Assembly (NCBI GenBank): GCA_964036045.1
Contig: OZ038379.1
Span: 109,989,268-110,053,267 of the forward strand
DNA length: 64,000 nt
From: Eutreptiella sp. 'Long Island Sound 2002'
Taxonomy: Eukaryota > Euglenozoa > Euglenophyceae > Eutreptiales > Eutreptiaceae
Direction of reading: 5' to 3'
Part shown: one piece after another, positions 8,720-58,077 of the stretch
Position numbering within the stretch: position 1 is the first letter of the stretch
Layout: each line of letters starts with the position of its first letter
The notes under the pieces: model-generated
The model's input: the letters and a program-made list of their open reading frames with translations, nothing else
The model's database searches: none
Told to the model about the DNA's origin: nothing
Program-made: the position numbers and the translations under genes

Positions 8720-8722
<3 letters not shown>

Positions 8723-16222: not shown

Positions 16223-16243
16223 GCGTGTCTCTAGCTGGTGGAG

Positions 16244-19158: not shown

Positions 19159-22100
19159 GGCTGGGAGGCATGCATCCGCTGCTGCTGCATCGCGTCCTGC
19201 ACGTGCAGCAGGGACACCGTCGCCAGCATGGACATCCCCCCGTCCGCTGCCGCCGCCATACACAGCAGGGCATGCTGCATGCGCGCCCCGGGCAGCCCCA
19301 CGCTGTGCGGCACGTCCGCCAGGTCCAAGGGCGTGCGGGGCGCCGGCAGGGCATCCAACACCGCTGCAGGCAGCTCCCCAAGGGACGGCAGACGCGCCAT
19401 GGGCCCCATGTCCCTGTTGAGGACCACCGCCGCCACCCACCGCCTGTCCAGCGCGGACAGGAGGTTGCCCGGCATCGGCACCCTGAGGAGGGTACCGACG
19501 GCGGACATGAGGGCGCACACGCCACAGTCCTTGGTGTTGCCGGCAGGTTGCTGCACCTGTGCCGCCCGGGCCTCCGCCAGCAGATGCTCTGCAGCCGGCC
19601 ATCCCGCCCTCTGGCCCCTGGGTGCCATGCGCATCAACTGGACCGCCATGTCCCATGTGTGCGGCCACTGGGGCGGGGCCCCCGACACCATAGGCCGGCC
19701 CAGCGGGTCCACGGTCAACCGCATGTCAGGGGCCACTAGGTGGTGGGCTGTCCAGTGCCGCATGTTCGGCGTCTGCGACCGGTCGAGGTACACCGCCTCC
19801 GAGCCCCCCAGCTCGACGTACCTCGCAATGAGGAGGGCAGCCGGGGTTTGGTCGTGCCGCTGGCCCTCCCACCCCTCCCTCGGGAGCATCATGGCGTGGA
19901 GGGCCAGGCACTGCACCACGTCGGCTGCCAGCGCAACCACGTCGTCGCTGAGCTCCACCCCATGGTCTGCGGCCACCATGAACTGGTGCCTGGGCTTGGA
20001 GTACAGGTGCTCCAGGGCGCCCCGCAACTCAGCCGGTGGGGGAGAGGCATCTCCGCAGTCCTGCAGCCAGGGGAGTGCGCCCGGGAGATGCCGCCCTGCT
20101 CCTCCTGACCAGCCGGCGGCCTTATGGACCGGCAGGTCTCGCCAGACAGCCCTAGCGACCGGATCGCGCCAGGGCTGTGGCTTGTTTGCTCCCCACTGGA
20201 GGACAGCCACCACTACATGCGTGGTCAGGGGCTCTGCCGTGAGCTGCAACGCTGTCCCCCCGTCGGTCTCGATCACCGTGCCCCGTGGGGTAGTGGGGAC
20301 GTGGCCATCGGTCCCACAGACCGCCACCCATCCCCACAAGACCGCCACGGTCTCCCAGCTGGGGTGGCTGGTTCTCCTGGGCAGGACCACCACCGGCGGG
20401 CACGGGCTGTTGGCGGCCCACACGCGCCATTCCACTCCCACCACACGCTCGTGACCAGGGGGCCGGTACACCTGGGGCCACGCGTCTGGGAGCTGGCGAT
20501 GGACAGCGGTCCGCACATCAGCCCCGCCAGCCCGCGTGAACTGGAGTCCCTCCAGGATGTCCCTGTCCACAGGGCTGGAGAGGCGGGCAGTGCGAACCTC
20601 CAGCCCCTGGCCCAGGCAAAGCCCTGGCCCCTCTCGGTCTCCCAGCAGCGAGACCTCCGGGTGTGTGGCCGCAAGACGAGCCGCCACCGTGGGGAGATGC
20701 AGGGAGACAGTCCACGGCTGGACTGAGACGGGCTCGCGCGGGAGGTCAGGGCAGGCCGCAACAGCACTGCCATCCCTCGCCCAGCTCAGCGCCCTGTCCC
20801 ACCACTGCGCCCACGCACCCGGCGCTGCCGGCAACGACCAGGACACGTACGTCACGACCGCCTTAGCCCGCCACTCGCGAGGGTCCATGCCGGCAGGATG
20901 TGTGTGCCACGTGCACACCCACCCCAGATTGGCTTCCTGGACGGTGACCACGTCCCTCCACGGGACCATCGGGAGCGGAGTGAGCAGGGCCGCCATGCCA
21001 CATGGCAATGCCACTGCCCACTCGGTCAGGCCCTCACTCTCCACCGCATACCCCACCGCTGGGAGCCCTCCTCCTTGCGCCTTTACCACCGCTTCCTGCA
21101 GCAATGTTCCGTGGCCCCGGCCGTGGTTCTGGCTGCGGTCCAGGCTGAGGGCCCCCACACGGGCCATGGCCTGGAGGATCAGGTGTAATTCCTGGGGTAC
21201 TCCCCGCGGCACCGGCGGCTGGGGGTGGGCGAACCGGCACGCATCCGCCCGCATGCACCATCCCTTGGCCCAGTGCCTGCAGGTTACCGCCTCCCCCGTC
21301 TTCGGCCCAGCCCTGTCCGCCACTCCCAGCTCCTGTGGACCCACCTCACGCGCCTCCTTCGCCCGCACGATCTCCAGCTCCTCGTCCTGCTCCAAGGCGC
21401 TCTGTGCCTCTGCACCCTTGAACTCCGGCTCCTCGTCCCGCTCCATGGCAACTTGTGCCTTCTCACTCCTCCTGCGTTGGTCCTCCTCCTCCAGTGCCTC
21501 CGTCGTCGGCGGCGGGCCCGCCGCATCCGTGAACTTCGCCAGGGCCGCCGCCACAATGGCCTGCAGGTGCACCTCCTTCCCGGCCACCTCCGGCTGATCC
21601 TGCTGCTGCTCCTCCCCCGTTGGTTGCTCCTGCCGCACCTCGTCACCGCCACGGCCTGCCTCCTCATCACCCCCCACCAGGACCGCGTGTTCCGACCCCT
21701 GGGGGGCGGCGCTCTCGTCGAGGCGCGTGCCCACCACCACCAGCAGCTTGAGGTCACCGCCGCGGCTCTCAAGGCGGTAGCTGGTGGAGGTGGGGACAAG
21801 GATCGCCCCATCCCAGCTCAGCAGCAGGCGGTCCGCGCCGAACACGACCTCTGCAACCTCGGGGTGCACCGCCACCAGGAGCGCATGGGACCCCAGCGCC
21901 TGGGGTGTGAGGGGCCGCACGGCCTGCTCGCGACGCCAAGCGTCAGCCCCACCTCGCCACAAGGCCACGTACAGGCCTTCGTCCCGCCGCACGTCCTCCA
22001 GCCCTGTCCCGTCCAGCAGCGCCCCACGGACAGGCGCACCGACAGGGGGAGGCCTTCATGGGGCTCGGCCGCCCGGACATCACCGGGGTGGTGACCCAGG

Positions 22101-22578
22101 ACCGCCGTGTCCCCCAGTTGGACACAGCGGACCTGGCCGTTGTCCGGGGACGCTGCCACCAGGGGCATCTCCTGGGCGACCTGCCCTGGGCGCTGGAGCT
22201 CGTAGCGCTCCAGGGCGCTCGCCAGCGTCCCTGCCTCAGGCTGCCCCGTGCCCATGAGGCGGTGCCTGTGGGCACCCTCGTCCGCATGGTACCTGCATTG
22301 CCGCCGCTCACAGCTCCCCAGGGGAGGGGGCGGCACCGCAGTGGGCATGGGCCGCAGCGGCGCGTTGGCCGGGTCCTCGTCCATGCCGGCGTAGACGTCG
22401 GGCCCGGCGTCGTCCTCATACATGAGGGCCAGCGCCGACTCGCCGGGCCCGTACGCCTCCTCGTCCCCCTCGCCCTCCGCCTCCTGCTCTCCCTCGGCCC
22501 CTTCTCCAGCCGCGACCATCGCCGGCGGCGTGTCCGGCCGCGGCGGGAAGGGCGCCAGAGGCCGCTCGTCAGCGCCTC

Positions 22579-22580
<2 letters not shown>
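19005..22580 (-). pseudogene. ORF A (5'-truncated, frameshifted): CCCH zinc finger plus Ulp1-like protease
   Basis: The same protein as at 37908-41484, but one G is missing near 22019 (CAGCGCC instead of CAGGCGCC on the plus strand), which splits it into a 5' frame ending near the deletion and a 995-codon frame from 21992. The 5' side is cut by (TA)n, and the Ile-Tyr residues before MGGADERP are microsatellite. Domains are as in the other copy: acidic low-complexity region, CCCH finger around 21230-21290, long conserved middle, and C-terminal Ulp1-like protease with candidate His in RHWTAHH and Cys in KDCGVC. If the duplication is an assembly artefact, the missing base is most likely an error. 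Confidence 0.7.
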
Positions 22581-26005: not shown

Positions 26006-26008
<3 letters not shown>

Positions 26009-27104
26009 ATAGTCATAGTCATAACCACTTATCATGCCGTCTACTGGAGTTACCGGGCATCTCGCGCCAACAGGTGGTTCCTGCCTCGCTCGATCCTGTG
26101 GGTCCCACGGCTGCCTGAGGTGGCCCACAGCATGACGGAGGACCCAGAGGACCAGGGATACCGGTCAACCAGGCTTTGGGGGCAGTGGCAACTGCATTGC
26201 GTTAGCATTAGCAACGGCGACGGACGCTGGCCCGTTTGTTCGCCGGGGGTAAGGGGGCAAGGCACAGCAACGCAGCAGCATCGCAACAAGTAGAAAGCAA
26301 GGGCTTCCCTGTCCGGCGCAAAGCGGCAACCAAGGAACAAAGCAGCACGCATGCGGCGAAGCGAGAGCGGACCCTCCGTCGTTCGCGTACCCCCGCCACC
26401 GTGGAGATGTCCATCACCCGTGACCCCACGGAATCCATTGCCGTCTGCGTACTCGTAATTGCCCACCACCCCTGACTCCATGTCTCCCTCTGCCAGCATG
26501 CATTAGCCCGTATATGCATATCCACGATTTCTGGGAGGCTCCAGCCTAGCCTGGCCCTCAGCTTTCATCGCCTCCATGTCCCCACAATGTACCCACAATG
26601 TACGCCGCCGACCCACCGCACCAGTCCCCTAGTATAGTACAGAAATACGATATCAACTATACGTCCCCGCGGTCCTGAGCTGCTCCCACACCCCAGATAT
26701 ATACCAAGCAGGCACTTCATGTCAGGGGCCAGCACCCAATCAGCTTCGAGGCATCCACTTGCCTACGTATAATATAACTTGAGGGTCTACAGGGGGGGAC
26801 GCGGGCAGCTACGCGACGGGAGTGGCGCAACCCGTGAATATCGCTGGCTGGGATTCGGGCTGGTGGGTGCCGTAGCTTGCTTATCGACTCCCTGTAGGGG
26901 TATTCACCAGAGGCTCGCCCCGGGCTGTGGTAACCAGGTGCACCTCATCTGGCCCACATACCATTGCCCTGGCGCCTACCCTTGACCCTTACCTGCACTG
27001 ATTGGCCAGCTCCCGTGGTTGCGCCTCTTCCGCCACAGCAGCGGCCAGGCCGCAGGTTCGGCCTCCAGCGACGACGTGGCGAGCCTACTTATAGCATTGG
27101 CCCG
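26006..27104 (-). mobile_element. 5'-truncated copy of the main element (duplicate of 7103-8189)
   Basis: The same 3' fragment ending in three TATGAC units. It differs from the first copy by an 11-bp tandem insertion near 26590 and one extra C near 26962. Confidence 0.8.
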
Positions 27105-27625
<521 letters not shown>

Positions 27626-29666
27626 ATAGTCATAGTCATAACCACTTATCATGCCGTCTACTGGAGTTACCGGGCATCTCGCGCCAACAGGTGGTTCCTG
27701 CCTCGCTCGATCCTGTGGGTCCCACGGCTGCCTGAGGTGGCCCACAGCATGACGGAGGACCCAGAGGACCAGGGATACCGGTCAACCAGGCTTTGGGGGC
27801 AATGGCAACCGCATTGCGTTAGCATTAGCAACGGCGACGGACGCTGGCCCGTTTGTTCGCCGGGGGTAAGGGGGCATGGCACAGCAACGCAGCAGCATCG
27901 CAACAAGTAGAAAGCAAGGGCTTCCCTGTCCGGCGTAAAGCGGCAACCAAGGAACAAAGCAGCACGCATGCGGCGAAGCGAGAGCGGACACTCCGTCGTT
28001 CGCGTACCCCCGCCACCGTGGAGACGTCCATCACCCGTGACCCCACGGAATCCATTGCCGTCTGCGTACTCGTAATTGCCCACCACCCCTGACTCAATGT
28101 CTCCCTCTGCCAGCATGCATTAGCCCGTATATGCATAGCCACGATTTCTGGGAGGCTCCAGCCTAGCCTGGCCCTCAGCTTTCATCGCCTCCATGTCCCC
28201 ACAATGTACGCCGCCGACCCACCGCACCAGTCCCCTAGTATAGTACAGAAATACGATATCAACTATACGTCCCCGCGGTCCTGAGCTGCTCCCACACCCC
28301 AGATATATACCAAGCAGGCACTTCATGTCAGGGGCCAGCACCCAATCAGCTTCGAGGCATCCACTTGCCCACGTATAATATAACTTGAGGGTCTACAGGG
28401 GGGGACGCGGGCAGCTACGCGACGGGAGTGGCGCAACCCGTGAATATCGCTGGCTGGGATTCGGGCTGGTGGGTGCCGTAGCTTGCTTATCGACTCCCTG
28501 TAGGGGTATTCACCAGAGGCTCGCCCCGGGCTGTGGTAACCAGGTGCACCTCATCTGGCCCACATACATTGCCCTGGCGCCTACCCTTGACCCTTACCTG
28601 CACTGTTTGGCCACCTCCCGTGGTTGCGCCTCTTCCGCCACAGCAGCGGCCAGGCCGCAGGTTCGGCCCCCACCAACGACGTGGCGAGCCTACTTATAGC
28701 ATTGGCCCGCGCGTCACCCCCCGGACCACTCAGCATGCCGCTCCTGCTCCCTCCTCGCCTCTAGGCGACCGGACTGGCGCCCCCCAGGGGTAAGCCGTTA
28801 CAATGGTGAGGCGACCGCATACTCTTCGCTACGACGCCACGCAGTACCGCTGTTGCCACGCCAATGCCACCCGCGAGCCGCCACGACACGCACCACCGCA
28901 ACCACAAGGCCATGGTCAGAGCTTAGACAATGTACATGCCCGCAGGCACGGTCCCTCTAGTTTGTTAACGGGGCCAGGGGATGCCCCCACGCTCCCCCTG
29001 AGTTGTTAGAGGGGTCACGAAGGCACACCAGTACCGCCATGCATCCCCGCTGCTCCCCGACTGTACGGTTCCCCAGTACCGCCGCGTACCTCCACCGTAC
29101 AGACCCCAGTACCGCTACGTATACCCCCAGGACGCCAGTACACCGTCACCTTGAACTCCACGTGCCCCCCATGAGTGCTCCTCCCACGCCGTCTCCAGGA
29201 CGCCCGCCATACTGTCCACCTGAAGACCCCGCTGTCATTTCCTTCTACGCACACATCTTCGCTTCGTCGCCGCCCCTGGGGCCTGCAGGCTGTCCCCGCA
29301 ACCCCGTGTAACACTCCCAGGGGGCGCCGTAACGCCGTAGCCCCCAGACAACTCCGTGCACCCCTGCTGTATCCCGAGCAACCACTCCCAATACTGCCGT
29401 AGCCGGGCCGCCAGTAGAGACCCCGGTGCCATGGGAATACCCTACAGGGGTTTGGGCCTTATTAACCTGGTCGGGACGACCCATGACACCTCACTGTTGT
29501 ATGCGGCGACCCGGGGCAGGCGGGTGAAGCATCCCTTCCTGACCCTCATGCACGGGGGCAGTACCACTCACCATCAGGCCGGCATGACCTGTCACATCGC
29601 GTTGGCCGTCATGAGCCGCCTGCCAGTACCGCACAATCAGGCCATGAAGGCACTGCTTCTCTGGCG

Positions 29667-30905
29667 CTACTGCCTCCGCTGCGTCCAGCGTAGGGATGGT
29701 AGCAGGTGCACCCACAATTCCCAAACCCAACAATCTGCATCACGCCCGGCCCCCACCACGCCGTCACCGTTTCCTCCGTGATGCCACAACCAGAGTATCC
29801 GTGAGTCGCCCTCCAGAGCCGCCCACCACAGCAGCAGAGGCAGGGCCGCCGACGGCACTCCAGGGCACCGTACCCCTTCCACTCGGACGCTCTTCAGGCC
29901 ACCCTGGATTGTCTTCCAGGCACTTGAGGACATCTGTCCAGAGTGCCGCAGTGCCCACCTCGCCTTAGGCCACCCCCTATCGGCACGCTCCTTACATGTC
30001 CCGCATAGTGGGACGGAGGCACACTGATGAACCCAAACTGACACCGTTTCCCTGCACCCGTGGTATCGCTGCGGAAGCACAGACCGTGACGGAACGCAGC
30101 TACCATCACAACACTGCGACCACAGGTCCTGCCATACATCGCAGCACGCGTCCTGGAGTCCGAGGAAAGCACCCGCCAGCGTGCGTGCTGTGGCACAACT
30201 GAGGAGGCTGCGCCTCGCTTCCTCCCACGTGGACACCGGGTGGAGTATCGATCGCCCGTCGGGCATCACGGGCAGGCTCTCAAGTAGCAGGGGCCACCGC
30301 GCAACTGTGGGGCTGTGTGTGCCATGCGCCAGGAGCTCCCAACCGTAGTCCTGTAAGACCTCCCTGATGACATCAACCCCGTCCTGCTTCGGGCCCCTGG
30401 CGGATGCCAGAACCAAGCGTTGTCCTCCCGCCCGAGCCTCAATGACCGCCGCGAGGCCCTGGGTGTCAAGGGTGTGACGGGCATCGGCAGCCACGTGGTC
30501 GTCCCCCTCTGGCAGAGAGAACATGGCCTCCGTGACGTGGTCTTGCGCGTCGTTGCCCTGTACTTGTGCCAGCTGCTTGGAGCCCACTAACACTGCGATG
30601 GACCGCTGCTCCGTGACCGCTGGTATGGCTCGTTGCAGCTGCCGGTGATACAGCCACAATGTACCTACGTCAAGTACGACAGCCACTGCCAGGATTGGGA
30701 GACTGAACAGAGGTTGCTGAAGGACCGGCAGCACCTCGCGAGCCCAGCCCATGACGTTCCCCACTGCTGGATGGTTCGCGTACACCTGGAGGCAGGGATC
30801 ACTCTTGCCGTCAGGGCTTCGCACCATGGTACCACGCACCAGGGCCCACGATTGCGCTGACACCACGCGAGACCACTCCCTGAATGTCGTGATGTCCCGT
30901 GCCAC
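29667..30905 (-). CDS. ORF E (duplicate): putative membrane-anchored Cys-rich protein
   Basis: Same 412 residues as at 10764-12002: a single hydrophobic segment at 65-86 and ten Cys between 237 and 304. It follows ORF D with a 240-base overlap in a different phase, so production would need a frameshift, reinitiation or a separate transcript. Function unknown. Confidence 0.5.
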   Translation of the reverse strand: MARDITTFREWSRVVSAQSWALVRGTMVRSPDGKSDPCLQVYANHPAVGNVMGWAREVLPVLQQPLFSLPILAVAVVLDVGTLWLYHRQLQRAIPAVTEQRSIAVLVGSKQLAQVQGNDAQDHVTEAMFSLPEGDDHVAADARHTLDTQGLAAVIEARAGGQRLVLASARGPKQDGVDVIREVLQDYGWELLAHGTHSPTVARWPLLLESLPVMPDGRSILHPVSTWEEARRSLLSCATARTLAGAFLGLQDACCDVWQDLWSQCCDGSCVPSRSVLPQRYHGCRETVSVWVHQCASVPLCGTCKERADRGWPKARWALRHSGQMSSSAWKTIQGGLKSVRVEGVRCPGVPSAALPLLLWWAALEGDSRILWLWHHGGNGDGVVGAGRDADCWVWELWVHLLPSLRWTQRRQ

Positions 30906-33900
30906 CCAGGAACCGATTCACGGGCTGAAGGCCTGCGCCACCACCGCCATCTGTGAGGGAACAAGGACATCGCCTCTTCTTGCGCGATGCACGACCGTGG
31001 CACCAGCAGTGCTTGCAGCGGTGCCCTCTGAAAGGTTGCCCGCAGGTCGCCGGGGAGGCCGGCAAACGGGTTCCATGGCGGACGCTGCTGTATCCTCCCT
31101 GCTGGCGGGCAGAAGGATGTGTCAGCTCGCAGGAACGCGTATACCGCCCTCCTTCGATCTTGCATCGGCAGCTGCATGATCTGGGTGAGCCGATGGTTCC
31201 TGCGGGCATACACATCTTCCCCAATCTGGACCATGTCCTCCACAAGGAGCCTGGCCTTGGCAGGGCCCCGGGACGACGCCGCTTGCAAGGCAGCGAACAA
31301 CCGCTTCAGGTCCCCGGGGACGACACCCGCCATGAGGGATTCCGTCCATCTGCAGCCGTGCTCCCTCCACGCCACGAACTCCACCGCCCTGTCTGCCAGG
31401 GGTAGCTCCGCCGTGAACTCCTCCACACCCCTGCACAGGAGCCCAGCCACTTCCTCGTCCTGTGCACACAGTAGGCGCATGTGGCCAATGTCCTCCTCCG
31501 GCCCCCCACAGAAGATACAGGGGTTGGCCGGTATTGCCATACGCGTGAGCTTCTGTCTCCACCGTCGCATGACCTGCATGGTGAACAAGCGACCGTCACG
31601 TGCCCGCAGCATATTTCTCTGCGTTGGGCCGTGGTGTACAGCTCCCAGGGGCACCGCCTCGCAGGCGCCAGCCAGTGGCGTGTGCGCCCTGTTGCATGCC
31701 GCTAGCGAACGCCACTCCATCTCCCGGACTTGCTGAAGGGCTTGCATGGATGGCACACGCGGCTGGAGCTCTCCATTATCTGCCGGCACCAAGAGGATGG
31801 CGTGCTCCTTTGGCAGGACGAGATGGATAGGCGGGGCCATTGCACGGGCCGCGGCAGAGTCCGGCGCCTTGAGCGGGACCGCCGCCAAGTGCGAGCTCTG
31901 CCTCACCACCCAGTGGTGCGGCCCCCCAACTCGGCGCGGCAGCCGCCGCAGCCCCCCCACTATCCAGCTCAGTGCGTGCTGACTGACCAGATGTGACGTC
32001 GGCCCCTTGATGCCACGATACAGGGCCTCCTGCACCCTGCGGAGATGCGCTCCTATGACGGACGCATCCACCACGTGCACCGTGCACGCTGACGGGAGCG
32101 TGTGTAACAAGTACGCCGCCGCGCGGATGATCTCTGCCTCCGGGACCCTGCCGTAGATGGCACCCGTCCACGTGGGGACTCCGTGGCTGGCCACCGCCAC
32201 ATTTGTGGCGTCGTCTCCCTGGGGCGACGCGTCAGATGATGTGACTTTAGTCGCCACCGGCACCCAGCAGTACCGGTGGGGTTCCAGCCACGCCACGTCG
32301 GAGTGGGGGCTCTGCACCACCTTTCCTAGGCACGCCGCACTGGAGGCCGTGAGCTCCGGGGACAGCACCACCCTCGGCCGATATACCGCCTGTGGTCTCA
32401 AGGCCAGGTCACATCCACAGACTGACTTGATGGCGTCCAGGGCGGTGGTATACTCCGCCCGCCATATTGTTGCGGAGCAGGAGGGCTGGTATACCACTAC
32501 AGACCCCTGTTCCACTGCGCCGCCGTCACGCAACGACGTGACGGCGACATGCGGATCGTGTGGCACGTTGGACATCCAGACCACTTCCGGGACCGAGTAC
32601 TCATCCGGATCCAGGATGGGGCCTGCTGGCAGCAGAAGGACGATTGCCCACTCGCTGCACCCGTGCACCGCCGCGCATGCCCTGGAAACCGCTGGCCGCC
32701 CGTGCACAACCCACAGTGGTGGCGGGCTTATGCCGCCCCGGGCGTGAGGAGTGAGTAGCGGGACGGACGCCGGATCGTCTTGCTGTTGGTAACCCTCAAA
32801 GACGTCCCCCAATAGAAACAGGAGGGCGGCTAGCGGGACGAACGGCATGGACAGCCCCGGGTTGGCTAGGTCCCATCCTTCCTCCCTGTATCCGCCCACC
32901 ACATACACGTCCCCCGCAGTGGACTGTTTATTGCGTTTGCTGGCCTTCTTTCGGCGCACCGGGTGCATTAGCCGGTGAGTCAACAGACTAGGCAGCTGCT
33001 GCCGGAAGACGTCGCTGAGCCCCGTGAACCACACGTGGTCCAGCTGACGGGGCCCTACTCCTGCGTGCGGAAGGTGCAGGTGGTCCTCATGACACTCCTG
33101 AAGCTGGACAGCCCAGTGCCCAGGCGCAGGACAGGGGAGCCGCGCATGCAGGAGGTCATTTGCGGGATCAGTCAGGGACTGTACCGTCGCATCAGTGCGG
33201 GGCCCCGAGAGAACGCAGATGTCTCTACCTTTGAAGGAATAGGTTTGGGACACCCACTTCCGCCCCGCCCACTGCACTTGCGGCAGATGGGCGTGTACGC
33301 ACGAGTACACCGACGATGGCATGAGAAGTCCTACCCGCAACGTCCCCATCGCCAGGAGTACCCTGTCCACCCACGTATTGCCAGCGTGCGTGGTGAATGA
33401 CGCAGAGGGCACCATGAACTGCTTGCACATTCGGTACTGCACGTGCATGTCCCGGAGCATGGCCCGCAGCTCATCCCGGACTGTCGTCGACCTGTGGTGG
33501 GTGAGCTGAGCCATGGTCGCCACGACGGAGTCGCGGCAGATAACCTGGACATCCGCCAACCGTAACCCATGACCCGACCGCACTGCCACGTTGGACAGGT
33601 CTTTGGGCAGCTTCTCGAATTGCAGGGCTGCAACCTTGATGGCTGTATTCAGCTTGATCACCGCCTCCGCCGAGTTGGACAGGTAGGGCGCCGTGTACCG
33701 CACGATGCCTCCAACCACAGCCGCCATCACCTCATGAGGCACGGACGCCGGCCCCAACGTGTTCTTGCACCAGCCCAGCAGAGCTTCACACCTGAGTACA
33801 TGTTTCTCCTTCATGGTCGCCACCCCCCTGGGATCGAGGCGCAGGCCCAAGTATGGTACCGTGCCCTTGGCGCGTAAGCATACCCATGAGGCCGCCGTGT

Positions 33901-35125
33901 TCCCTGGGCTCAGGCATACCATAATCGAATGGATGCGAGCAGTATTGGCATAGGCGCATTTGCCGACGTTGAGGGACATGCCCATGTCCGTGAGATACCG
34001 CGCTATCGCCGCTGCATACTCCAGGAATTGCGGCAGGGAGTGCGCTATCAACAGGAGGTCATCACAGTACGCCTGCACCAGGGGTGGCACCGCATGCGGA
34101 GCATCTCCCAGCGCCTTGCAGGCGAGGCTCCGCAGGAGAGGCTCCAAGAGGAGGAGGTAGAGCACAGCGCTCTCCGCACTGCCCTGCCGCAGGCCCCTGT
34201 GGAGCCGAATGCTCAGCGTCGGGCCGTGCGCGGTGACGATGCGCACCAGAGACCCGCAGCTGAGGGTGTGGAAGAGCCTGATGAGCTCCTCCGGGACACC
34301 CATGTGGCGCAGGAGGAGCGCCAGCGCCCCGTGCGGCGCTGTGTCAAAAGCTTTTGACACATCGAAGGCCAGCACGTGGTTTTCCTCCAGCCCACGCTGC
34401 AGCCTGCGCTGGGCCAGGAACACCGGGGCAGCCGCCGTGGAGCCCGGCATGGCTCCGAACTGCCAGTCCGCAGCCAGTCCCTTGCGTGCCAGGACGGCTG
34501 TGAACCTCCGCATGAGGTGAGTCATGAGCATTCGCATGTCTTGCTGCCCCAGCGCTATCGGCCTGTACTCGTCCAGGTTGCCCGTGGCTGTGCCCTTGGG
34601 CTTCAGCCAGATAATGGCCTCGTGCCAGGACTCCAGGACGTCCGCACCCCGTAGGATTGCCCTGTACGGGTGCACCAGGAGCCCCTGCACCGGTTCAGGC
34701 AGCTCTGCTATGAGGGCAGCCGTGACCCGGTTGGACCCCGGAGCTTTGTCGTCCGCCACGGCCTGCCTCATGGCGTCTTTAAGGTCCTGCAGGGTGTAGT
34801 CCTGTACCGACCTCCATTCCTCCGGCACCCCTTTGGGAATGCGGGCCCGGACCAGCCGCTTGAAGGCCGGCAGGTTCACTGGCCGCTTGGCGTACAGCGC
34901 CTCCCAATACCTCTGGACCTCGCCAATGACGTCCGAGGCCTCGAAGAGCACCTTCTCCGATTTCCGGACGCGTACGGACCATAGGCCTGACGGGGCATAG
35001 TTCACCATGTTGATGGCCCCCCGTATCGCCGTCCATTGGAGCTGCAGATCCGGTACCCTGCCCCGCCAATAGTCCTTGATGGACCGGCGCCTGTTGCTCC
35101 TGAGGACACCCCGCAGCTCCTCCAC
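30665..35125 (-). CDS. ORF D (duplicate): reverse transcriptase, RNase H-like region, zinc knuckle
   Basis: Same 1,486 residues as at 11762-16222. The catalytic YCDD is encoded at 34069-34058, motif A near 34370-34342, and the CIFC knuckle near 31519-31508. Motif A DNA contains a perfect 20-bp palindrome at 34341-34360. The frame follows ORF C in phase after a single TAG. Confidence 0.88.
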   Translation of the reverse strand: MEELRGVLRSNRRRSIKDYWRGRVPDLQLQWTAIRGAINMVNYAPSGLWSVRVRKSEKVLFEASDVIGEVQRYWEALYAKRPVNLPAFKRLVRARIPKGVPEEWRSVQDYTLQDLKDAMRQAVADDKAPGSNRVTAALIAELPEPVQGLLVHPYRAILRGADVLESWHEAIIWLKPKGTATGNLDEYRPIALGQQDMRMLMTHLMRRFTAVLARKGLAADWQFGAMPGSTAAAPVFLAQRRLQRGLEENHVLAFDVSKAFDTAPHGALALLLRHMGVPEELIRLFHTLSCGSLVRIVTAHGPTLSIRLHRGLRQGSAESAVLYLLLLEPLLRSLACKALGDAPHAVPPLVQAYCDDLLLIAHSLPQFLEYAAAIARYLTDMGMSLNVGKCAYANTARIHSIMVCLSPGNTAASWVCLRAKGTVPYLGLRLDPRGVATMKEKHVLRCEALLGWCKNTLGPASVPHEVMAAVVGGIVRYTAPYLSNSAEAVIKLNTAIKVAALQFEKLPKDLSNVAVRSGHGLRLADVQVICRDSVVATMAQLTHHRSTTVRDELRAMLRDMHVQYRMCKQFMVPSASFTTHAGNTWVDRVLLAMGTLRVGLLMPSSVYSCVHAHLPQVQWAGRKWVSQTYSFKGRDICVLSGPRTDATVQSLTDPANDLLHARLPCPAPGHWAVQLQECHEDHLHLPHAGVGPRQLDHVWFTGLSDVFRQQLPSLLTHRLMHPVRRKKASKRNKQSTAGDVYVVGGYREEGWDLANPGLSMPFVPLAALLFLLGDVFEGYQQQDDPASVPLLTPHARGGISPPPLWVVHGRPAVSRACAAVHGCSEWAIVLLLPAGPILDPDEYSVPEVVWMSNVPHDPHVAVTSLRDGGAVEQGSVVVYQPSCSATIWRAEYTTALDAIKSVCGCDLALRPQAVYRPRVVLSPELTASSAACLGKVVQSPHSDVAWLEPHRYCWVPVATKVTSSDASPQGDDATNVAVASHGVPTWTGAIYGRVPEAEIIRAAAYLLHTLPSACTVHVVDASVIGAHLRRVQEALYRGIKGPTSHLVSQHALSWIVGGLRRLPRRVGGPHHWVVRQSSHLAAVPLKAPDSAAARAMAPPIHLVLPKEHAILLVPADNGELQPRVPSMQALQQVREMEWRSLAACNRAHTPLAGACEAVPLGAVHHGPTQRNMLRARDGRLFTMQVMRRWRQKLTRMAIPANPCIFCGGPEEDIGHMRLLCAQDEEVAGLLCRGVEEFTAELPLADRAVEFVAWREHGCRWTESLMAGVVPGDLKRLFAALQAASSRGPAKARLLVEDMVQIGEDVYARRNHRLTQIMQLPMQDRRRAVYAFLRADTSFCPPAGRIQQRPPWNPFAGLPGDLRATFQRAPLQALLVPRSCIAQEEAMSLFPHRWRWWRRPSARESVPGWHGTSRHSGSGLAWCQRNRGPWCVVPWCEALTARVIPASRCTRTIQQWGTSWAGLARCCRSFSNLCSVSQSWQWLSYLT

Positions 35126-35146
35126 GCGTGTCTCTAGCTGGTGGAG

Positions 35147-36406
35147 CTATTGGTCCAACGCGGCACGTAGGTCCTCCACCGAGGCGGGGGACAGGTTGGG
35201 GTCCACCCGCCGGAGGTGCTGTAGCAGGGCAGTCGCTTCCTGGGAGTGGAGTCCGGCCGCCGCCGCGTCTCGTTGCCACAGCTGATGGGCGCGCCAGGCC
35301 AGGGCCTGCTGAACCGAGAGGACCTCGGCCAAAGACGCCTTCGTCTCCGCCTGCCCGTACGGGTACTGCGGGTCCACGCCTGATGGCATGCGCACTCCCG
35401 TGACCCTGGACACGTCATCCCGGAAGGCGTAGAGCAGGTCAAAGACCGCTTGCACCTCCGACGTGCCCATGGTGGCGGTGTCCTGGTCCGACGAGAGCCA
35501 CGCCTGTAGCCGCCGATCCCCGCAGGCCTTCTGCAGTACTGCCGCCGCCGCCTCACGAACGCCCGGGGAGTCCGGGCGTATGGCATGCAGCCTGCCTTGG
35601 GCGTGCGAGTAGGCCATCCTGGTGACCCTCTCTTTGCCGGCCACCGCCAGCGGGAGGTCCAGGACCACAGGGCCATGATCCGACCCCAGCGACGCTGGAG
35701 ACCGCCCGGGCGCCAAGTGTGGGCGCTCACGCGCCGCCCATGGGACTAGAGGCGAGTTTAGAAGGAAGGGATCCAGTCGGTGCCCTGCCCTCGTGGGCCT
35801 CCTGTCCTCCTCCCGTTCCGGGCCTGCCCTGTGGAAACCACACTGTTCCCACAGGGCTTGGAACCTCCTCATGGTGGGGTGGCACAGGGACCCCAGCCAC
35901 ACGTTGAAGTCCCCTCCGAGGAGCACGGTCCTGGTGCCACCGGCGCTCTTGGCCGCCGCGTACATGGCCACGTCAGCCCAGAAGGACGCCTTAGACGCCC
36001 AGGAGTCGCCGACGCTACCCGGGCCGTGGACCTTGATGACCGTGAGGGTGCCACCTGCGGTCACCACATCGAGGGCCATGGCCTTACCCGGCAGGATGTC
36101 CACGATGTCTCGAACTTCCTCCGCGGCGAACATGTCCGCCCGAAGGGCAATCAAGAGCCCGCCGCGCACCGCTGCCGCTGACGCTGCCTGGGCATCCACC
36201 CCTGGGTACGCATGATACCCGTGGTGACGCCACTGATTCTCCGAGTGCACCACTCCCTGAGGGTCCTGCAGGCCGGTCTCCTGGAATAGGCCCAGGATGG
36301 CACCCTCGGCCTTCATGATGCCCGCCGCCACCGCTTCACCGTCGAGCATACCTGGGGCCACTGGTACGCCGTCCCCCCGCATCGAGCCCTGGACTTTCCA
36401 GGACAC
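35147..36406 (-). CDS. ORF C (duplicate): APE-type endonuclease
   Basis: Same 419 residues as at 16244-17503, with QE at 42-43, GDFN at 165-168 and SDH at 242-244. The stop TAG separates it from ORF D without a change of phase. Confidence 0.87.
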   Translation of the reverse strand: MSWKVQGSMRGDGVPVAPGMLDGEAVAAGIMKAEGAILGLFQETGLQDPQGVVHSENQWRHHGYHAYPGVDAQAASAAAVRGGLLIALRADMFAAEEVRDIVDILPGKAMALDVVTAGGTLTVIKVHGPGSVGDSWASKASFWADVAMYAAAKSAGGTRTVLLGGDFNVWLGSLCHPTMRRFQALWEQCGFHRAGPEREEDRRPTRAGHRLDPFLLNSPLVPWAARERPHLAPGRSPASLGSDHGPVVLDLPLAVAGKERVTRMAYSHAQGRLHAIRPDSPGVREAAAAVLQKACGDRRLQAWLSSDQDTATMGTSEVQAVFDLLYAFRDDVSRVTGVRMPSGVDPQYPYGQAETKASLAEVLSVQQALAWRAHQLWQRDAAAAGLHSQEATALLQHLRRVDPNLSPASVEDLRAALDQ

Positions 36407-38061
36407 CGCCGCTCCGGTGTCGGAAGCGGGTCCCTTTCATGGCTGCACGTGTGGACCGGGCCACCCGCCGGATCCGGATCACCGGACGGAGGGGGGCCAC
36501 CAACAGGTTCAGGGGGACCACCCGCACCCGGCGCAGGCGGCCGGCGAGGTGGCCCCTGTCCCCGTGGGCCTCCGCCCGAGGCGGCCGTCGTCTGCCGAGA
36601 CGCGGCAGATGCGTCAGGCTTCCCCTCTGCCTGCCCGCCGGATGTACTTGCCGCCGTACTCCCCGTAGAAGTCACTGCCCCACGCGGTGCTGCAGACCCA
36701 ATCGCTCCAGATCGTGCCGCCGACGGTGACGCCCCGCGCTCTGCCGCAGGGCGGGCACCGGTGGGCAGCGTGAGCGCTCTGGACCCCGCCTGAGCCGACG
36801 CGAAAGGCCCCGCCTGGCCCCCCGGCATAACGCCAGCCAACATGGCCAGCGCCTGGTCCCGCTGCGCCGGATCAGTCGCATGGTCCCGCTGGATGTGGTC
36901 CAGCAGGTCCTTGGGGTGGAGGTGGGTAGGCCGGCAGTGCGTGCCAGCTTTCCATGTGCAGTGACCAGCCCCATCCAGCCGAGACCAGGGGCAGACGTTG
37001 ATTGTCTTTGTCCCACGCTGCTCCGTGGCCAAGTCACCACCGATGTGCCGCAGCACGTACCGAATGTTGGCATAGCCGCCATACTGAGGTGGCGGGCCCC
37101 TCTTGGGCGGCGGCTTGGGCGCCGCTTTCGGGGCCTGCCTCGCCGCTGCGGCCGGGGGTGCTGCAGGCCGTACCGGTGGCACGCTTGGAGGCTGCGGCAG
37201 GTGCAGCATTCCCCCCACGGGAAACTGCTCCTCCACCCAGCGGCGCCACGCGTCGGCGAACTTCTCCCGGTCGCCCTCGACCTTCCACCTGGACGCGGAG
37301 AACGCCCGGAGCCCCAGCCCCATGTTCTCCGCCATGACCAGGCGGGGGGCATCCCCTCCCCTCTGCCGGCGGAAGCCTGTCGCGGCCGCGCCTGCCACGG
37401 TCCCTTGGAGGTACAGCGCCTCGCCCCCGTCGCCACTCAGTGCACTAAGGTGCAGGGCCTCCAGGTCGGCGGGGCGGACCGTGAGCACCGTGCCCTCTCC
37501 GCGATCGTACAGGCGCAGCGCCGAGGAGTGGGGCTCCAATGCCGCCACAACCCAGCACCATGCCCGCGACACGCTATGCAACAGTGCCAGCGAGGCTGCC
37601 GGCCTGTTGCTGGAGGACTGTGCTGCCGGGGCCCTGGGGAGGGCCGCTGCGTGACCCTGCAGCGCCCTGCACATGACAGCTGCATGCTCAGCCTGCCACA
37701 TGTTGCTCGGGGCCATGGGCCAGACGTCCTGCCCCTGGATCGCCGGCGGTCGCATGACCTCCACGAAGACCGCCGGCACCGGCGGGATGTCCTCGGCCGT
37801 GCACCTGTGTGCCCTGCGCTCAGACCCCAGCTCCCTGAGGCACTCCCGGAACACCCGGTAGCAGGCCGGGCCGCTGGACTGCTGCCTCCTGAGCCGGCAC
37901 GTGGTGCCTACGACCCACTCCAGTCCCCCTGTTTCCACCCAAACACAGACCCAATACTGCTCCCCCCGGACATCACCAGCCGCCCCAAATCCGCCACGCC
38001 CACCGTATGGGTGGAAGGCACGCTCTCCACCCTCAGCCACCGCTTGGCGCTTTCTTCCCAT
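36313..38061 (-). CDS. ORF B (duplicate): zinc-finger ORF1-like protein
   Basis: Start chosen at the ATG at 38061 (MGRKRQAV), as in the first copy, because the longer open frame to 38571 only mirrors ORF A. It has a globular N-terminal half, a Pro/Ala linker, a Cys/His cluster around HCRPTHLHPKDLLDHIQRDH, and a low-complexity end overlapping the endonuclease. Confidence 0.6.
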   Translation of the reverse strand: MGRKRQAVAEGGERAFHPYGGRGGFGAAGDVRGEQYWVCVWVETGGLEWVVGTTCRLRRQQSSGPACYRVFRECLRELGSERRAHRCTAEDIPPVPAVFVEVMRPPAIQGQDVWPMAPSNMWQAEHAAVMCRALQGHAAALPRAPAAQSSSNRPAASLALLHSVSRAWCWVVAALEPHSSALRLYDRGEGTVLTVRPADLEALHLSALSGDGGEALYLQGTVAGAAATGFRRQRGGDAPRLVMAENMGLGLRAFSASRWKVEGDREKFADAWRRWVEEQFPVGGMLHLPQPPSVPPVRPAAPPAAAARQAPKAAPKPPPKRGPPPQYGGYANIRYVLRHIGGDLATEQRGTKTINVCPWSRLDGAGHCTWKAGTHCRPTHLHPKDLLDHIQRDHATDPAQRDQALAMLAGVMPGGQAGPFASAQAGSRALTLPTGARPAAERGASPSAARSGAIGSAAPRGAVTSTGSTAASTSGGQAEGKPDASAASRQTTAASGGGPRGQGPPRRPPAPGAGGPPEPVGGPPPSGDPDPAGGPVHTCSHERDPLPTPERRCPGKSRARCGGTAYQWPQVCSTVKRWRRAS

Positions 38062-41000
38062 GGCTGGGAGGCATGCATCCGCTGCTGCTGCATCGCGTCC
38101 TGCACGTGCAGCAGGGACACCGTCGCCAGCATGGACATCCCCCCGTCCGCTGCCGCCGCCATACACAGCAGGGCATGCTGCATGCGCGCCCCGGGCAGCC
38201 CCACGCTGTGCGGCACGTCCGCCAGGTCCAAGGGCGTGCGGGGCGCCGGCAGGGCATCCAACACCGCTGCAGGCAGCTCCCCAAGGGACGGCAGACGCGC
38301 CATGGGCCCCATGTCCCTGTTGAGGACCACCGCTGCCACCCACCGCCTGTCCAGCGCGGACAGGAGGTTGCCCGGCATCGGCACCCTGAGGAGGGTACCG
38401 ACGGCGGACATGAGGGCGCACACGCCACAGTCCTTGGTGTTGCCGGCAGGTTGCTGCACCTGTGCCGCCCGGGCCTCCGCCAGCAGATGCTCTGCAGCCG
38501 GCCATCCCGCCCTCTGGCCCCTGGGTGCCATGCGCATCAACTGGACCGCCATGTCCCATGTGTGCGGCCACTGGGGCGGGGCCCCCGACACCATAGGCCG
38601 GCCCAGCGGGTCCACGGTCAACCGCATGTCAGGGGCCACTAGGTGGTGGGCTGTCCAGTGCCGCATGTTCGGCGTCTGCGACCGGTCGAGGTACACCGCC
38701 TCCGAGCCCCCCAGCTCGACGTACCTCGCAATGAGGAGGGCAGCCGGGGTTTGGTCGTGCCGCTGGCCCTCCCACCCCTCCCTCGGGAGCATCATGGCGT
38801 GGAGGGCCAGGCACTGCACCACGTCGGCTGCCAGCGCAACCACGTCGTCGCTGAGCTCCACCCCATGGTCTGCGGCCACCATGAACTGGTGCCTGGGCTT
38901 GGAGTACAGGTGCTCCAGGGCGCCCCGCAACTCAGCCGGTGGGGGAGAGGCATCTCCGCAGTCCTGCAGCCAGGGGAGTGCGCCCGGGAGATGCCGCCCT
39001 GCTCCTCCTGACCAGCCGGCGGCCTTATGGACCGGCAGGTCTCGCCAGACAGCCCTAGCGACCGGATCGCGCCAGGGCTGTGGCTTGTTTGCTCCCCACT
39101 GGAGGACAGCCACCACTACATGCGTGGTCAGGGGCTCTGCCGTGAGCTGCAACGCTGTCCCCCCGTCGGTCTCGATCACCGTGCCCCGTGGGGTAGTGGG
39201 GACGTGGCCATCGGTCCCACAGACCGCCACCCATCCCCACAAGACCGCCACGGTCTCCCAGCTGGGGTGGCTGGTTCTCCTGGGCAGGACCACCACCGGC
39301 GGGCACGGGCTGTTGGCGGCCCACACGCGCCATTCCACTCCCACCACACGCTCGTGACCAGGGGGCCGGTACACCTGGGGCCACGCGTCTGGGAGCTGGC
39401 GATGGACAGCGGTCCGCACATCAGCCCCGCCAGCCCGCGTGAACTGGAGTCCCTCCAGGATGTCCCTGTCCACAGGGCTGGAGAGGCGGGCAGTGCGAAC
39501 CTCCAGCCCCTGGCCCAGGCAAAGCCCTGGCCCCTCTCGGTCTCCCAGCAGCGAGACCTCCGGGTGTGTGGCCGCAAGACGAGCCGCCACCGTGGGGAGA
39601 TGCAGGGAGACAGTCCACGGCTGGACTGAGACGGGCTCGCGCGGGAGGTCAGGGCAGGCCGCAACAGCACTGCCATCCCTCGCCCAGCTCAGCGCCCTGT
39701 CCCACCACTGCGCCCACGCACCCGGCGCTGCCGGCAACGACCAGGACACGTACGTCACGACCGCCTTAGCCCGCCACTCGCGAGGGTCCATGCCGGCAGG
39801 ATGTGTGTGCCACGTGCACACCCACCCCAGATTGGCTTCCTGGACGGTGACCACGTCCCTCCACGGGACCATCGGGAGCGGAGTGAGCAGGGCCGCCATG
39901 CCACATGGCAATGCCACTGCCCACTCGGTCAGGCCCTCACTCTCCACCGCATACCCCACCGCTGGGAGCCCTCCTCCTTGCGCCTTTACCACCGCTTCCT
40001 GCAGCAATGTTCCGTGGCCCCGGCCGTGGTTCTGGCTGCGGTCCAGGCTGAGGGCCCCCACACGGGCCATGGCCTGGAGGATCAGGTGTAATTCCTGGGG
40101 TACTCCCCGCGGCACCGGCGGCTGGGGGTGGGCGAACCGGCACGCATCCGCCCGCATGCACCATCCCTTGGCCCAGTGCCTGCAGGTTACCGCCTCCCCC
40201 GTCTTCGGCCCAGCCCTGTCCGCCACTCCCAGCTCCTGTGGACCCACCTCACGCGCCTCCTTCGCCCGCACGATCTCCAGCTCCTCGTCCTGCTCCAAGG
40301 CGCTCTGTGCCTCTGCACCCTTGAACTCCGGCTCCTCGTCCCGCTCCATGGCAACTTGTGCCTTCTCACTCCTCCTGCGTTGGTCCTCCTCCTCCAGTGC
40401 CTCCGTCGTCGGCGGCGGGCCCGCCGCATCCGTGAACTTCGCCAGGGCCGCCGCCACAATGGCCTGCAGGTGCACCTCCTTCCCGGCCACCTCCGGCTGA
40501 TCCTGCTGCTGCTCCTCCCCCGTTGGTTGCTCCTGCCGCACCTCGTCACCGCCACGGCCTGCCTCCTCATCACCCCCCACCAGGACCGCGTGTTCCGACC
40601 CCTGGGGGGCGGCGCTCTCGTCGAGGCGCGTGCCCACCACCACCAGCAGCTTGAGGTCACCGCCGCGGCTCTCAAGGCGGTAGCTGGTGGAGGTGGGGAC
40701 AAGGATCGCCCCATCCCAGCTCAGCAGCAGGCGGTCCGCGCCGAACACGACCTCTGCAACCTCGGGGTGCACCGCCACCAGGAGCGCATGGGACCCCAGC
40801 GCCTGGGGTGTGAGGGGCCGCACGGCCTGCTCGCGACGCCAAGCGTCAGCCCCACCTCGCCACAAGGCCACGTACAGGCCTTCGTCCCGCCGCACGTCCT
40901 CCAGCCCTGTCCCGTCCAGCAGGCGCCCCACGGACAGGCGCACCGACAGGGGGAGGCCTTCATGGGGCTCGGCCGCCCGGACATCACCGGGGTGGTGACC

Positions 41001-41482
41001 CAGGACCGCCGTGTCCCCCAGTTGGACACAGCGGACCTGGCCGTTGTCCGGGGACGCTGCCACCAGGGGCATCTCCTGGGCGACCTGCCCTGGGCGCTGG
41101 AGCTCGTAGCGCTCCAGGGCGCTCGCCAGCGTCCCTGCCTCAGGCTGCCCCGTGCCCATGAGGCGGTGCCTGTGGGCACCCTCGTCCGCATGGTACCTGC
41201 ATTGCCGCCGCTCACAGCTCCCCAGGGGAGGGGGCGGCACCGCAGTGGGCATGGGCCGCAGCGGCGCGTTGGCCGGGTCCTCGTCCATGCCGGCGTAGAC
41301 GTCGGGCCCGGCGTCGTCCTCATACATGAGGGCCAGCGCCGACTCGCCGGGCCCGTACGCCTCCTCGTCCCCCTCGCCCTCCGCCTCCTGCTCTCCCTCG
41401 GCCCCTTCTCCAGCCGCGACCATCGCCGGCGGCGTGTCCGGCCGCGGCGGGAAGGGCGCCAGAGGCCGCTCGTCAGCGCCTC

Positions 41483-41484
<2 letters not shown>
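37908..41484 (-). CDS. ORF A (5'-truncated): CCCH zinc finger plus Ulp1-like cysteine protease
   Basis: The frame is open from (TA)n; real sequence starts at MGGADERP. In order: an acidic Glu/Gly-rich segment; a conserved stretch (SALERYELQRPGQVAQEM, DEGLYVALWRGGADAWRREQ); a Gln/Glu-rich acidic region; a canonical C-x7-C-x5-C-x3-H finger (CRHWAKGWCMRADACRFAH) near 40186-40130; a long conserved middle; and a C-terminal protease-like domain. The latter has SDDVVALAADVVQ, RHWTAHHLV (candidate catalytic His at 38658-38660), VDPLG (candidate Asp), and a Gln-x-Pro...KDCGVC block with candidate nucleophile Cys at 38427-38429. The order His, Asp, Gln, Cys and the DCG motif match Ulp1/SENP (C48) proteases. 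RNA binding plus proteolysis of self, SUMO-like or host substrates is inference. It stops at TAG, 150 bases inside ORF B. Confidence 0.8.

Positions 41485-41568
<84 letters not shown>
41485..41568. repeat. (TA)n microsatellite (duplicate of 22581-22664)
   Basis: Same length and TAC interruptions as the first copy, abutting the 5' end of the truncated element. Confidence 0.95.
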
Positions 41569-41576
41569 CCTCCAAT

Positions 41577-53898: not shown

Positions 53899-53987
<89 letters not shown>

Positions 53988-54011
53988 CTGTGTGTGTGTG
54001 TGTGTGTGTGT
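53899..54011. repeat. (TA)n followed by (TG)n microsatellite
   Basis: Pure TA to about 53977, then TG with one TC interruption. No retroelement end is visible next to it. Confidence 0.95.
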
Positions 54012-54198
54012 ACTGCCTCCAAGTGAAAATACACTCCTTTCCCCTCAATTTCAACTCCCTCCAAGTGAATATCCACTCCTTCCTACTCAATTTCACCTCC
54101 CTCCTGCTCAGTTTCCACTCCCTCCGAGTGAAAATCTACTCCCTCCAAGCGAATATCACCACCCTCCTACTCAATTTCTACTCCTTCCAAGTGAAATA
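54012..54198. repeat. 42-bp tandem repeat, about 4.5 units
   Basis: Imperfect copies of CTCCCTCCAAGTGAATATCC followed by ACTCCTTCCTACTCAATTTC. Short frames read LPPSE-type repeats, but there is no reason to call a gene. Confidence 0.8.
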
Positions 54199-56200: not shown

Positions 56201-56299
56201 CAAACGTCGTGCCGTGCGCCGTGCGCGTCCTGCAACCTACTCTGACCTCATCCATGCGTCATGTCTTGTCCGTCACGCCTGGGACAGGAAGCAGGAAGC

Positions 56300-58040: not shown

Positions 58041-58077
58041 GAAAAAAAAAAAAAAAAAATAAAAAAAAAAAAAAAAA
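58041..58077. repeat. Poly(A)-type tract with one T
   Basis: Two A runs of about 18 bases separated by a single T, on the plus strand. It may be the tail of an unrecognised retrosequence ending here, or a simple homopolymer. Confidence 0.7.

What the first reader, a model, noticed from the sequence alone, without database searches (positions are those of the whole stretch)
27623..41484. Giant non-LTR retrotransposon coding for a CCCH finger, an Ulp1-like protease, EN, RT, RNase H and an extra membrane-type ORF
Five overlapping frames give a predicted full length above 15.9 kb, more than twice a typical LINE. The combination of a CCCH RNA-binding finger with a SUMO-protease-like domain in the first protein, and a Cys-rich protein with a membrane segment as the last, is unusual. 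Cysteine proteases of the OTU and Ulp1 types are known from a few non-LTR families, so the novelty lies in the whole arrangement. A protease could process the element's own proteins or remove SUMO from chromatin at the target; both are inference.
Basis: partly seen in the sequence, partly recalled or inferred. Interest (0 to 1): 0.85.

Follow-up and report, generated by a model that had tools for sequence, protein, structure and literature searches.

The report
Giant TA-repeat-targeting LINE with protease-like domain
The five broken reading frames are a truncated, decayed copy of a very large selfish DNA element (about 20.8 thousand letters, two huge genes) that inserts into TA repeats and carries a protease-like domain; a second copy in the same window shows what the whole element looks like.

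Summary
The frames at 27623-41484 are a 5'-truncated non-LTR retrotransposon with frameshifts and a nonsense codon. A + strand copy, running off the window's right edge, shows the architecture: 5' end near 54258, 3' end at 75011 (window numbering), about 20.75 kb. ORF1, 2374 codons: His-rich repeats, one CCCH finger, a C48/Ulp1-like His-Asp-Gln-Cys chain. ORF2, 2234 codons: AP-endonuclease, RT, RNase H-like pattern, CCHC, zinc-ribbon C-terminus. The "extra membrane ORF" is that C-terminus. Ten domains compared show dN/dS below 1. In 27 of 30 best-matching loci the 3' end meets (TA)n; the three 5' ends read lie beside TA tracts; one neighbouring copy is 5'-inverted as in twin priming. So it most likely inserts into (TA)n by target-primed reverse transcription. 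ORF2 follows ORF1's UGA in frame, with no AUG before the catalytic Asn; UGA stands in 12 of 12 junctions read. The protease fold is unconfirmed: Pfam silent, AlphaFold pLDDT 36, weak profile match. Closest known: Dualen (protease recalled), NeSL/Utopia, L1. Unusual in size and arrangement, not in kind.

The parts
27623..41484 (-). Copy 2: 5'-truncated, decayed copy of the element (13.86 kb); 5' end at 41484, 3' end at 27623
   Evidence: boundaries at (AT)n and (TA)n
8720..22580 (-). Copy 1: near-identical repeat of copy 2 beside the 200-N gap; probably the same locus from an unmerged contig overlap
   Evidence: 1 mismatch, 11 gaps over 18.7 kb; repeat ends at the gap
54258..64000 (+). Copy 3: 5' part of a full-length copy (about 54258-75011 in window numbering); the rest lies in L042 and L047
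54258..58921 (+). Copy 3: about 4.66-kb 5' untranslated region, shared with other copies
58922..64000 (+). Copy 3: ORF1, ATG to the window edge (2374 codons in all, TGA at 66044-66046)
59518..60275 (+). 189-bp tandem repeats coding the His-rich N-terminal part of ORF1
37911..41484 (-). Copy 2: ORF1 piece in frame A (CCCH finger and protease-like region)
40122..40184 (-). Single CCCH finger (C-x7-C-x5-C-x3-H)
   Evidence: frame A residues 455-475
38187..38969 (-). C48/Ulp1-like region; putative His 38658-38660, Asp 38610-38612, Cys 38427-38429
   Evidence: structure not confirmed
36456..38001 (-). Copy 2: ORF1 C-terminal half, frame B after a frameshift
35150..36406 (-). Copy 2: ORF2 AP-endonuclease (frame C)
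   Evidence: PF03372, E 7.8e-8
30668..35125 (-). Copy 2: ORF2 RT, RNase H-like and CCHC regions (frame D; same frame as C, nonsense codon between)
31937..32239 (-). RNase H-like D-E-D-H-D region (read by eye)
   Evidence: pattern only
29670..30905 (-). Copy 2: ORF2 C-terminal region with a zinc-ribbon-like Cys pattern (by eye) (frame E), not a separate protein
26006..27106 (-). 1.1-kb 3'-end copy in the same TA array
27107..27622 (.). (TA)n at the 3' junction of copy 2
41485..41568 (.). (AT)n at the 5' junction of copy 2
53899..54257 (.). (TA)n at 53899-53977 and further TA-rich sequence up to the 5' end of copy 3

Best explanation
This is a giant APE-type non-LTR retrotransposon, about 20.75 kb full length, with a 4.7-kb 5' UTR, ORF1 of 2374 codons, ORF2 of 2234 codons and a 2.26-kb 3' UTR. 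Shown: the anatomy, the selection signal and the TA-tract junctions. Inferred: ORF1 protein (His-rich, CCCH and further finger-like stretches) packages the RNA. The ORF2 endonuclease nicks a (TA)n tract, and the RNA end ...ACTATGACTATGACTA pairs with the nicked TA strand and primes target-primed reverse transcription, with frequent 5' truncation and some twin priming. The C48-like region most likely acts on the element's own proteins or on ubiquitin-like modifiers at the target; which of the two is open. The finding's span is one truncated, broken copy.
For: Two collinear open ORFs in copy 3. dN/dS 0.15-0.60 in the ten domains compared between copies 2 and 3 (the first 692 residues of ORF1 are absent from copy 2 and not tested). 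A+B joined in homologs, C+D in 17 of 199. 27 of 30 loci have (TA)4 or more within 40 nt of the 3' end, while 6 pieces of 10 kb taken arbitrarily hold no such run in five and 1 in one. The 5' end is shared by copy 3 and the C4 copy, each beside TA tracts. A 5'-inverted copy: 1015 bp antisense ORF1 joined to the last 29-30 bp of the element. 5 of the 30 loci hold a second match to the element, three of them the window's own copies. Catalytic residues kept: His 66/67, Asp 68/69, Gln 82/83, Cys 79/83, mean column identity 0.86.
Against: The 5' end rests on two copies. Target-site duplications cannot be seen in TA repeats, and no empty site was recovered, so part of the 3' (TA)n could be a tail. 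The 30 loci are the best matches to the 3' end, so a constant 3' end is partly selected for. 3 of 30 lack the TA tract by the strict count (L019, L022; L029 is TA/CA-rich). One of four copies fetched for its 5' region showed no match there (L071). Protease: no Pfam hit, no PDB profile hit, profile match limited to 19 columns, no usable model. RNase H: no HMM support. RT clade unresolved.
Confidence: 0.85

Rival explanations
1. ORF2 is made by readthrough of the ORF1 UGA, giving a polyprotein of about 4.6 thousand residues that the C48-like region cuts.
For: ORF2 follows the TGA in the same frame, with no AUG until +57 nt, past the catalytic Asn. TGA in 12 of 12 junctions read (11 of the 36 windows fetched span it, plus copy 3); the post-stop residues RGPASDTRAAVSWN are the same in 7 of 8 gapless ones, one exchange in the eighth. 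24 of 199 homologous proteins end at this stop.
Against: No unusual RNA structure after the stop (z 0.24). An AUG overlaps the stop (ATGA) in 11 of 12, though in another frame. Same frame arises by chance one time in three. Three homologous proteins run past this point, P0120 and P0132 through another frame and P0161 apparently through a changed codon. No cleavage sites known. The protease fold itself is unconfirmed.
Confidence: 0.2
2. ORF2 is made by termination-reinitiation at a non-AUG codon (GUG at +33) or near the ATGA, as LINEs often couple their ORFs.
For: ATGA at the stop in 11 of 12 junctions; stop-start coupling is described for SART1 and a related proposal for L1 (PMC5972666, passages seen).
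Against: The ATG opens a short frame that is not the endonuclease frame (read by eye); a GUG start would be unusual.
Confidence: 0.5
3. The frames belong to different elements nested in one another.
For: Frames overlap and change in copy 2.
Against: Same order, open, in copy 3; coding-type substitution along the compared length.
Confidence: 0.02
4. The C48-like region is not a protease: an unrelated domain with a chance HW..D..Q..DCG chain, or a dead relative.
For: No HMM, PDB or structure support; the pattern was chosen after seeing the sequence.
Against: 17 of 8000 shuffles match the chain and 1 of 8000 with the upstream L-x-D feature; the patterns find 4 of 7 and 2 of 7 host C48 sequences. 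Catalytic positions near-invariant.
Confidence: 0.3

Closest known systems
Dualen/RandI non-LTR retrotransposons
   Same: AP-endonuclease, RT, RNase H and a cysteine protease in one element (the protease is recalled from the original abstract; that paper is not held; PMC4640811 passages state APE plus RLE, and RNase H)
   Different: No restriction-like endonuclease noticed here by eye; far larger (sizes recalled); TA-tract insertion. Clade not tested for lack of reference RTs
NeSL and Utopia (nematode members with N-terminal Ulp1-like protease)
   Same: Ulp1-like protease domain in the N-terminal part and targeted insertion (PMC4640811, passages)
   Different: They have a restriction-like endonuclease after RT; this has an AP-endonuclease before RT
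L1 group, including plant L1 with RNase H and zf-RVT, and Zepp of green algae
   Same: EN-RT-RNase H-CCHC order; of the 7 weaker hits outside the family, at least four are plant RT proteins, L1-like in my reading (only 7989 candidates were scored); clustered 5'-truncated copies as in Zepp (PMC8226300, passages)
   Different: ORF1 of 2374 codons with CCCH and C48-like regions; 20-kb length; ORF2 C-terminal extension
Microsatellite-targeted non-LTR elements
   Same: Insertion into simple repeats (class named in the PMC4640811 abstract, seen in listings; families recalled)
   Different: No (TA)n-specific family appeared in the listing of the one search made for it

Membership tests
Non-LTR retrotransposon (LINE), APE type | AP-endonuclease before RT in one ORF | tested here: met
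   Pfam PF03372 and PF00078 on one protein (P0002, P0027); one frame in copy 3
Non-LTR retrotransposon (LINE), APE type | Constant 3' end with variable 5' truncation | tested here: met
   28 of 30 loci match through the 3' end, 2 to within 2 nt (best matches, so partly selected); 11 of 36 windows placed 8.5-9.5 kb upstream span the junction, one more partly (a miss may also be an indel shift); twin-primed copy
Dualen/RandI | APE plus RLE | tested here: inconclusive
   APE met; no RLE-like motif noticed by eye in the ORF2 C-terminus; no RLE model was run by name
Dualen/RandI | RT phylogeny | tested here: inconclusive
   Tree of 18 rows without Dualen references; 8 of 15 inner branches open
NeSL/Utopia | RLE after RT | tested here: inconclusive
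   APE at the N-terminus instead; RLE looked for by eye only
Peptidase C48 (Ulp1) | PF02902 match | tested here: not met
   No hit in copy 2 frames or in P0042 and P0044
Peptidase C48 (Ulp1) | His-Asp-Gln-Cys chain with C48-like spacing | tested here: met
   ORF1 1634, 1650 and 1711, Gln before the Cys; 17 of 8000 shuffles; pattern written after seeing the sequence
Peptidase C48 (Ulp1) | Papain-like fold with residues together | tested here: inconclusive
   AlphaFold pLDDT 32.5 and 36.0
CCCH zinc finger | C-x7/8-C-x5-C-x3-H at curated cut-off | tested here: inconclusive
   Spacing met; scores just under Pfam cut-offs
RNase H | D-E-D-H-D with HMM support | tested here: inconclusive
   Pattern kept at about 35% identity, by eye; no HMM or PDB hit
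(TA)n-targeted element | TA tracts at both ends | tested here: met
   3': 27 of 30; 5': the three ends read, copy 2, copy 3 and the C4 copy
(TA)n-targeted element | Empty pre-insertion site | not tested

The most novel reading that the evidence does not exclude
A 20.8-kb LINE that works like a retrovirus or RNA virus in its expression: ORF2 made only as a UGA-readthrough fusion of about 4.6 thousand residues, cut by the element's own C48-like protease, with insertion steered to TA microsatellites.
Probability: 0.12. Interest if true: 0.88.

Novelty: new variant of a known kind. Interest (0 to 1): 0.62.

Why it matters
Full-length LINEs of 20 kb with 4600 codons are, to my recalled knowledge, well beyond the usual 4-8 kb. 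If copy 3 and the C4 copy are typical, target-primed reverse transcription can carry templates of this size, in a genome where related copies are many (2396 first-look candidates for the 3' end, only 40 scored). A protease-like domain inside the first protein, next to an AUG-less ORF2, makes the question of what proteases do in non-LTR elements directly testable: self-processing or removal of ubiquitin-like tags. Repeated insertion into TA tracts could also help to explain the large TA arrays around these copies.

Tried and rejected
Five separate proteins: rejected by copy 3 and homologs. Separate membrane protein: rejected as an ORF, hydrophobic segment not conserved. Nested elements: rejected. 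Two independent insertions for copies 1 and 2: doubtful, the repeat ends exactly at the N gap. A 5' ribozyme: no Rfam hit of that kind in 53800-59000; the nine hits listed are all far below their gathering scores (best E 6e-5, a snoRNA model on the TA/TG tract) and I read them as low-complexity matches. An RNA structure after the UGA: none beyond shuffles. P0120 as evidence for readthrough: rejected, it runs through another frame. AlphaFold on ORF1: unusable, so no fold search was run. RT tree: too few references; three of its rows (L002, L004, L005) look like LTR-type RTs by eye. Organism: not named; CCCTAA repeats at 2 of 5 contig ends fetched and a host C48 stretch closest in the PDB to SENP2 suggest an animal; this is inference. 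A COX1 search did not complete, nor one for the related family's loci.
Full report
What was checked. The five frames exist as stated. Pfam supports AP-endonuclease in frame C and RT in frame D, and scores a CCCH finger in frame A just below its cut-offs; frames B and E have no hit worth the name, and no C48 model hits frame A. The span sits exactly between (AT)n at 41485-41568 and (TA)n at 27107-27622.

Copies in the window. An 18.7-kb stretch, 6017-24717, repeats 24918-43622 with 1 mismatch and 11 gaps; the first ends and the second begins at the 200-N gap 24718-24917. That is what two contigs with an unmerged overlap would give, so I count copies 1 and 2 as probably one locus. A third copy lies on the + strand. 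It matches copy 2 over 3003 bp with no gap at 92% identity and continues upstream of the point where copy 2 stops, in the same reading frame, so copy 2 is 5'-truncated inside ORF1.

The whole element. The neighbouring 20 kb (L042, L047) completes copy 3. ORF1 runs 58922-66043 (2374 codons, TAA just before its ATG, TGA at 66044). ORF2 runs 66047-72748 (2234 codons), and the 3' end is at 75011. The 5' end was sought by fetching the region upstream of ORF1 from four other copies. Three match copy 3 in pieces over the 3 kb fetched and one another at about 94% end to end; the fourth (L071) shows no match. The next 3.2 kb of one of them, on contig C4, matches copy 3 up to window about 54258, where both sequences turn into TA-rich flanks. 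Length is about 20.75 kb for copy 3 and about 20.9 kb for the C4 copy, whose interior was only sampled.

How copy 2 is broken. A to B: a frameshift inside ORF1. B to C: the ORF1/ORF2 boundary, with the frame disturbed before it. C to D: same frame, one nonsense codon. D to E: a frameshift near the end of ORF2. Homologs show the joined state: 100 of 199 proteins match both A and B, 17 of 199 match both C and D, one of these E too. P0027, from a related family 35% identical over 94% of frame D, carries most of ORF2 in one frame of 2181 aa, and its C-terminus matches frame E (E 8e-7). Hence E is not an extra gene. Its hydrophobic peak is 2.04 in copy 2 and 2.03 in copy 3 but 0.96 in P0027, and ORF2 has a similar peak elsewhere (1.96), so a membrane role is not supported.

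Selection. In the ORF1 frame dN/dS is 0.41, in the other two sense frames 1.37 and 1.17; one antisense frame gives 0.44, as can happen when codon positions mirror, but with 10 stops. By domain, dropping codons with gaps: 0.60, 0.25, 0.38 and 0.31 along ORF1 from residue 693, and 0.20, 0.18, 0.20, 0.15, 0.26 and 0.39 along ORF2; two domains hold one stop codon each in copy 2. The protease-like region has 0.38. This is one pair of copies, one of them dead.

Protease-like region. The chain is His1634-Trp, Asp1650, Gln, then Asp-Cys1711-Gly. Among homologs aligned there: His 66 of 67, Asp 68 of 69, Gln 82 of 83, Cys 79 of 83, against a mean identity of 0.86 (104 proteins aligned, not all cover each site). 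In shuffles of ORF1+ORF2, 17 of 8000 hold the chain, 1 of 8000 with the upstream L-x-D feature; the same patterns recognise 4 and 2 of 7 host C48 sequences. The pattern was written after seeing the sequence. A profile of 66 rows against 7 host C48 sequences aligns exactly the Cys box, P 0.0036, probability 9%; the other alignment gives P 0.025, probability 2%. Pfam and PDB profiles show nothing. AlphaFold models are unusable: 32.5 for 1174 residues with 27 sequences, 36.0 for 261 residues with 36; the homologs are probably too alike. So C48-like is a motif-level reading.

RNase H. A D-E-D-H-D series is kept between the two families, by eye, without HMM support; the PDB profile search gave RT hits to L1 and R2 and nothing for RNase H at E up to 1.

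Target and mechanism. The 3'-terminal 1078 bp has 2396 first-look candidates in the genome, 40 scored, all 40 at 95-100% identity. Of the 30 best loci, three being the window's own, 27 show at least four TA units within 40 nt of the 3' end; L019 and L022 do not, L029 is TA/CA-rich. Six arbitrarily chosen 10-kb pieces hold 0, 0, 1, 0, 0 and 0 such runs. The three 5' ends read (copy 2, copy 3, the C4 copy) also lie beside TA tracts. The host sequence CCTCCAATCTACACCCC beside copy 2's 5' TA tract recurs, with small changes, beside the 3' TA tract of L020, L030, L036 and L038, that is, insertion in the other orientation, as a self-complementary target allows. Next to the C4 copy lies a 5'-inverted copy, 1015 bp antisense of ORF1 joined to the last 29-30 bp of the element: the twin-priming signature. 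This supports target-primed reverse transcription at (TA)n; a part of the 3' tract may be copied tail. No empty site was obtained.

How ORF2 is expressed. ORF2 follows the ORF1 TGA in the same frame. The first AUG in that frame lies 57 nt on, behind the W-N of the endonuclease. 36 windows were fetched, 11 span the junction, and these 11 and copy 3 have TGA; 8 of the 11 are gapless, 7 of them read RGPASDTRAAVSWN and one has a single exchange. An ATG overlaps the TGA in 11 of 12, but opens another frame. 24 of 199 homologous proteins end at this stop; three (P0120, P0132, P0161) run past it, two through another frame and one apparently through a changed codon. Predicted proteins such as P0002 show M where the DNA here has GTG, so an M at the start of P0002 or P0029 does not prove an ATG. 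No special RNA fold follows (z 0.24). I favour reinitiation or a non-AUG start (about 0.5) over readthrough (about 0.2); the remainder is unknown.

Known relatives. PMC4640811 (passages) describes Ulp1-like proteases in nematode NeSL and one Utopia, APE plus RLE in Dualen, and RNase H in the I group, plant L1, Proto1 and Dualen. That Dualen also has a cysteine protease is recalled from its abstract; the paper is not held. PMC8226300 (passages) describes Zepp clusters and Dualen in green algae. PMC5972666 (passages) covers stop-start coupling. PMC2861651 (passages) gave nothing on the junction. Searches for giant or 20-kb LINEs, CCCH plus protease, TA targets and readthrough gave no such element in the titles and abstract starts listed; most of those papers were not opened, and the library lacks most subscription papers. 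The RT tree is not decisive.

Verdict. Size, ORF1 make-up and the AUG-less ORF2 are unusual; the kind is known.

Noticed in passing
24718-24917 and flanks: 200-N gap whose two sides are the ends of an 18.7-kb near-identical repeat: probable unmerged contig overlap in the assembly.
   Followed up: partly
44530-51982, minus strand: Remains of a different non-LTR element: weak RVT_1 (E 0.015) at 45876-47936 and RNase H- and CCHC-like stretches by eye.
   Followed up: partly
88-5417, minus strand: Long C-rich open frames of 260-689 aa; the five scanned have no Pfam hit at E up to 0.1.
   Followed up: partly
L088 1-1045 (reverse complement): Twin-primed, 5'-inverted copy: antisense ORF1 piece joined to the last 29-30 bp of the element.
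   Followed up: yes
G000 C1:84247907, C11:30342262, C571:20412 and others: Weak C48 matches in several frames of the same 1182-aa length: probably another mobile family with a C48 domain.
   Followed up: no
22781-23181 and 41685-42085: 162-bp tandem repeats near the TA tract that received the element; the sequence next to that tract recurs at other insertions.
   Followed up: partly
junctions in L055, L059, L061, L064, L072, L074, L075, L078, L081, L084, L086: ATG overlapping the ORF1 stop (ATGA) in 11 of 11, GTGA in copy 3; it opens a short frame other than ORF2's (by eye); role unknown.
   Followed up: partly
L041 (10 kb left of the window): 5000 of 10000 bases read N: a gap or a withheld stretch.
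   Followed up: no
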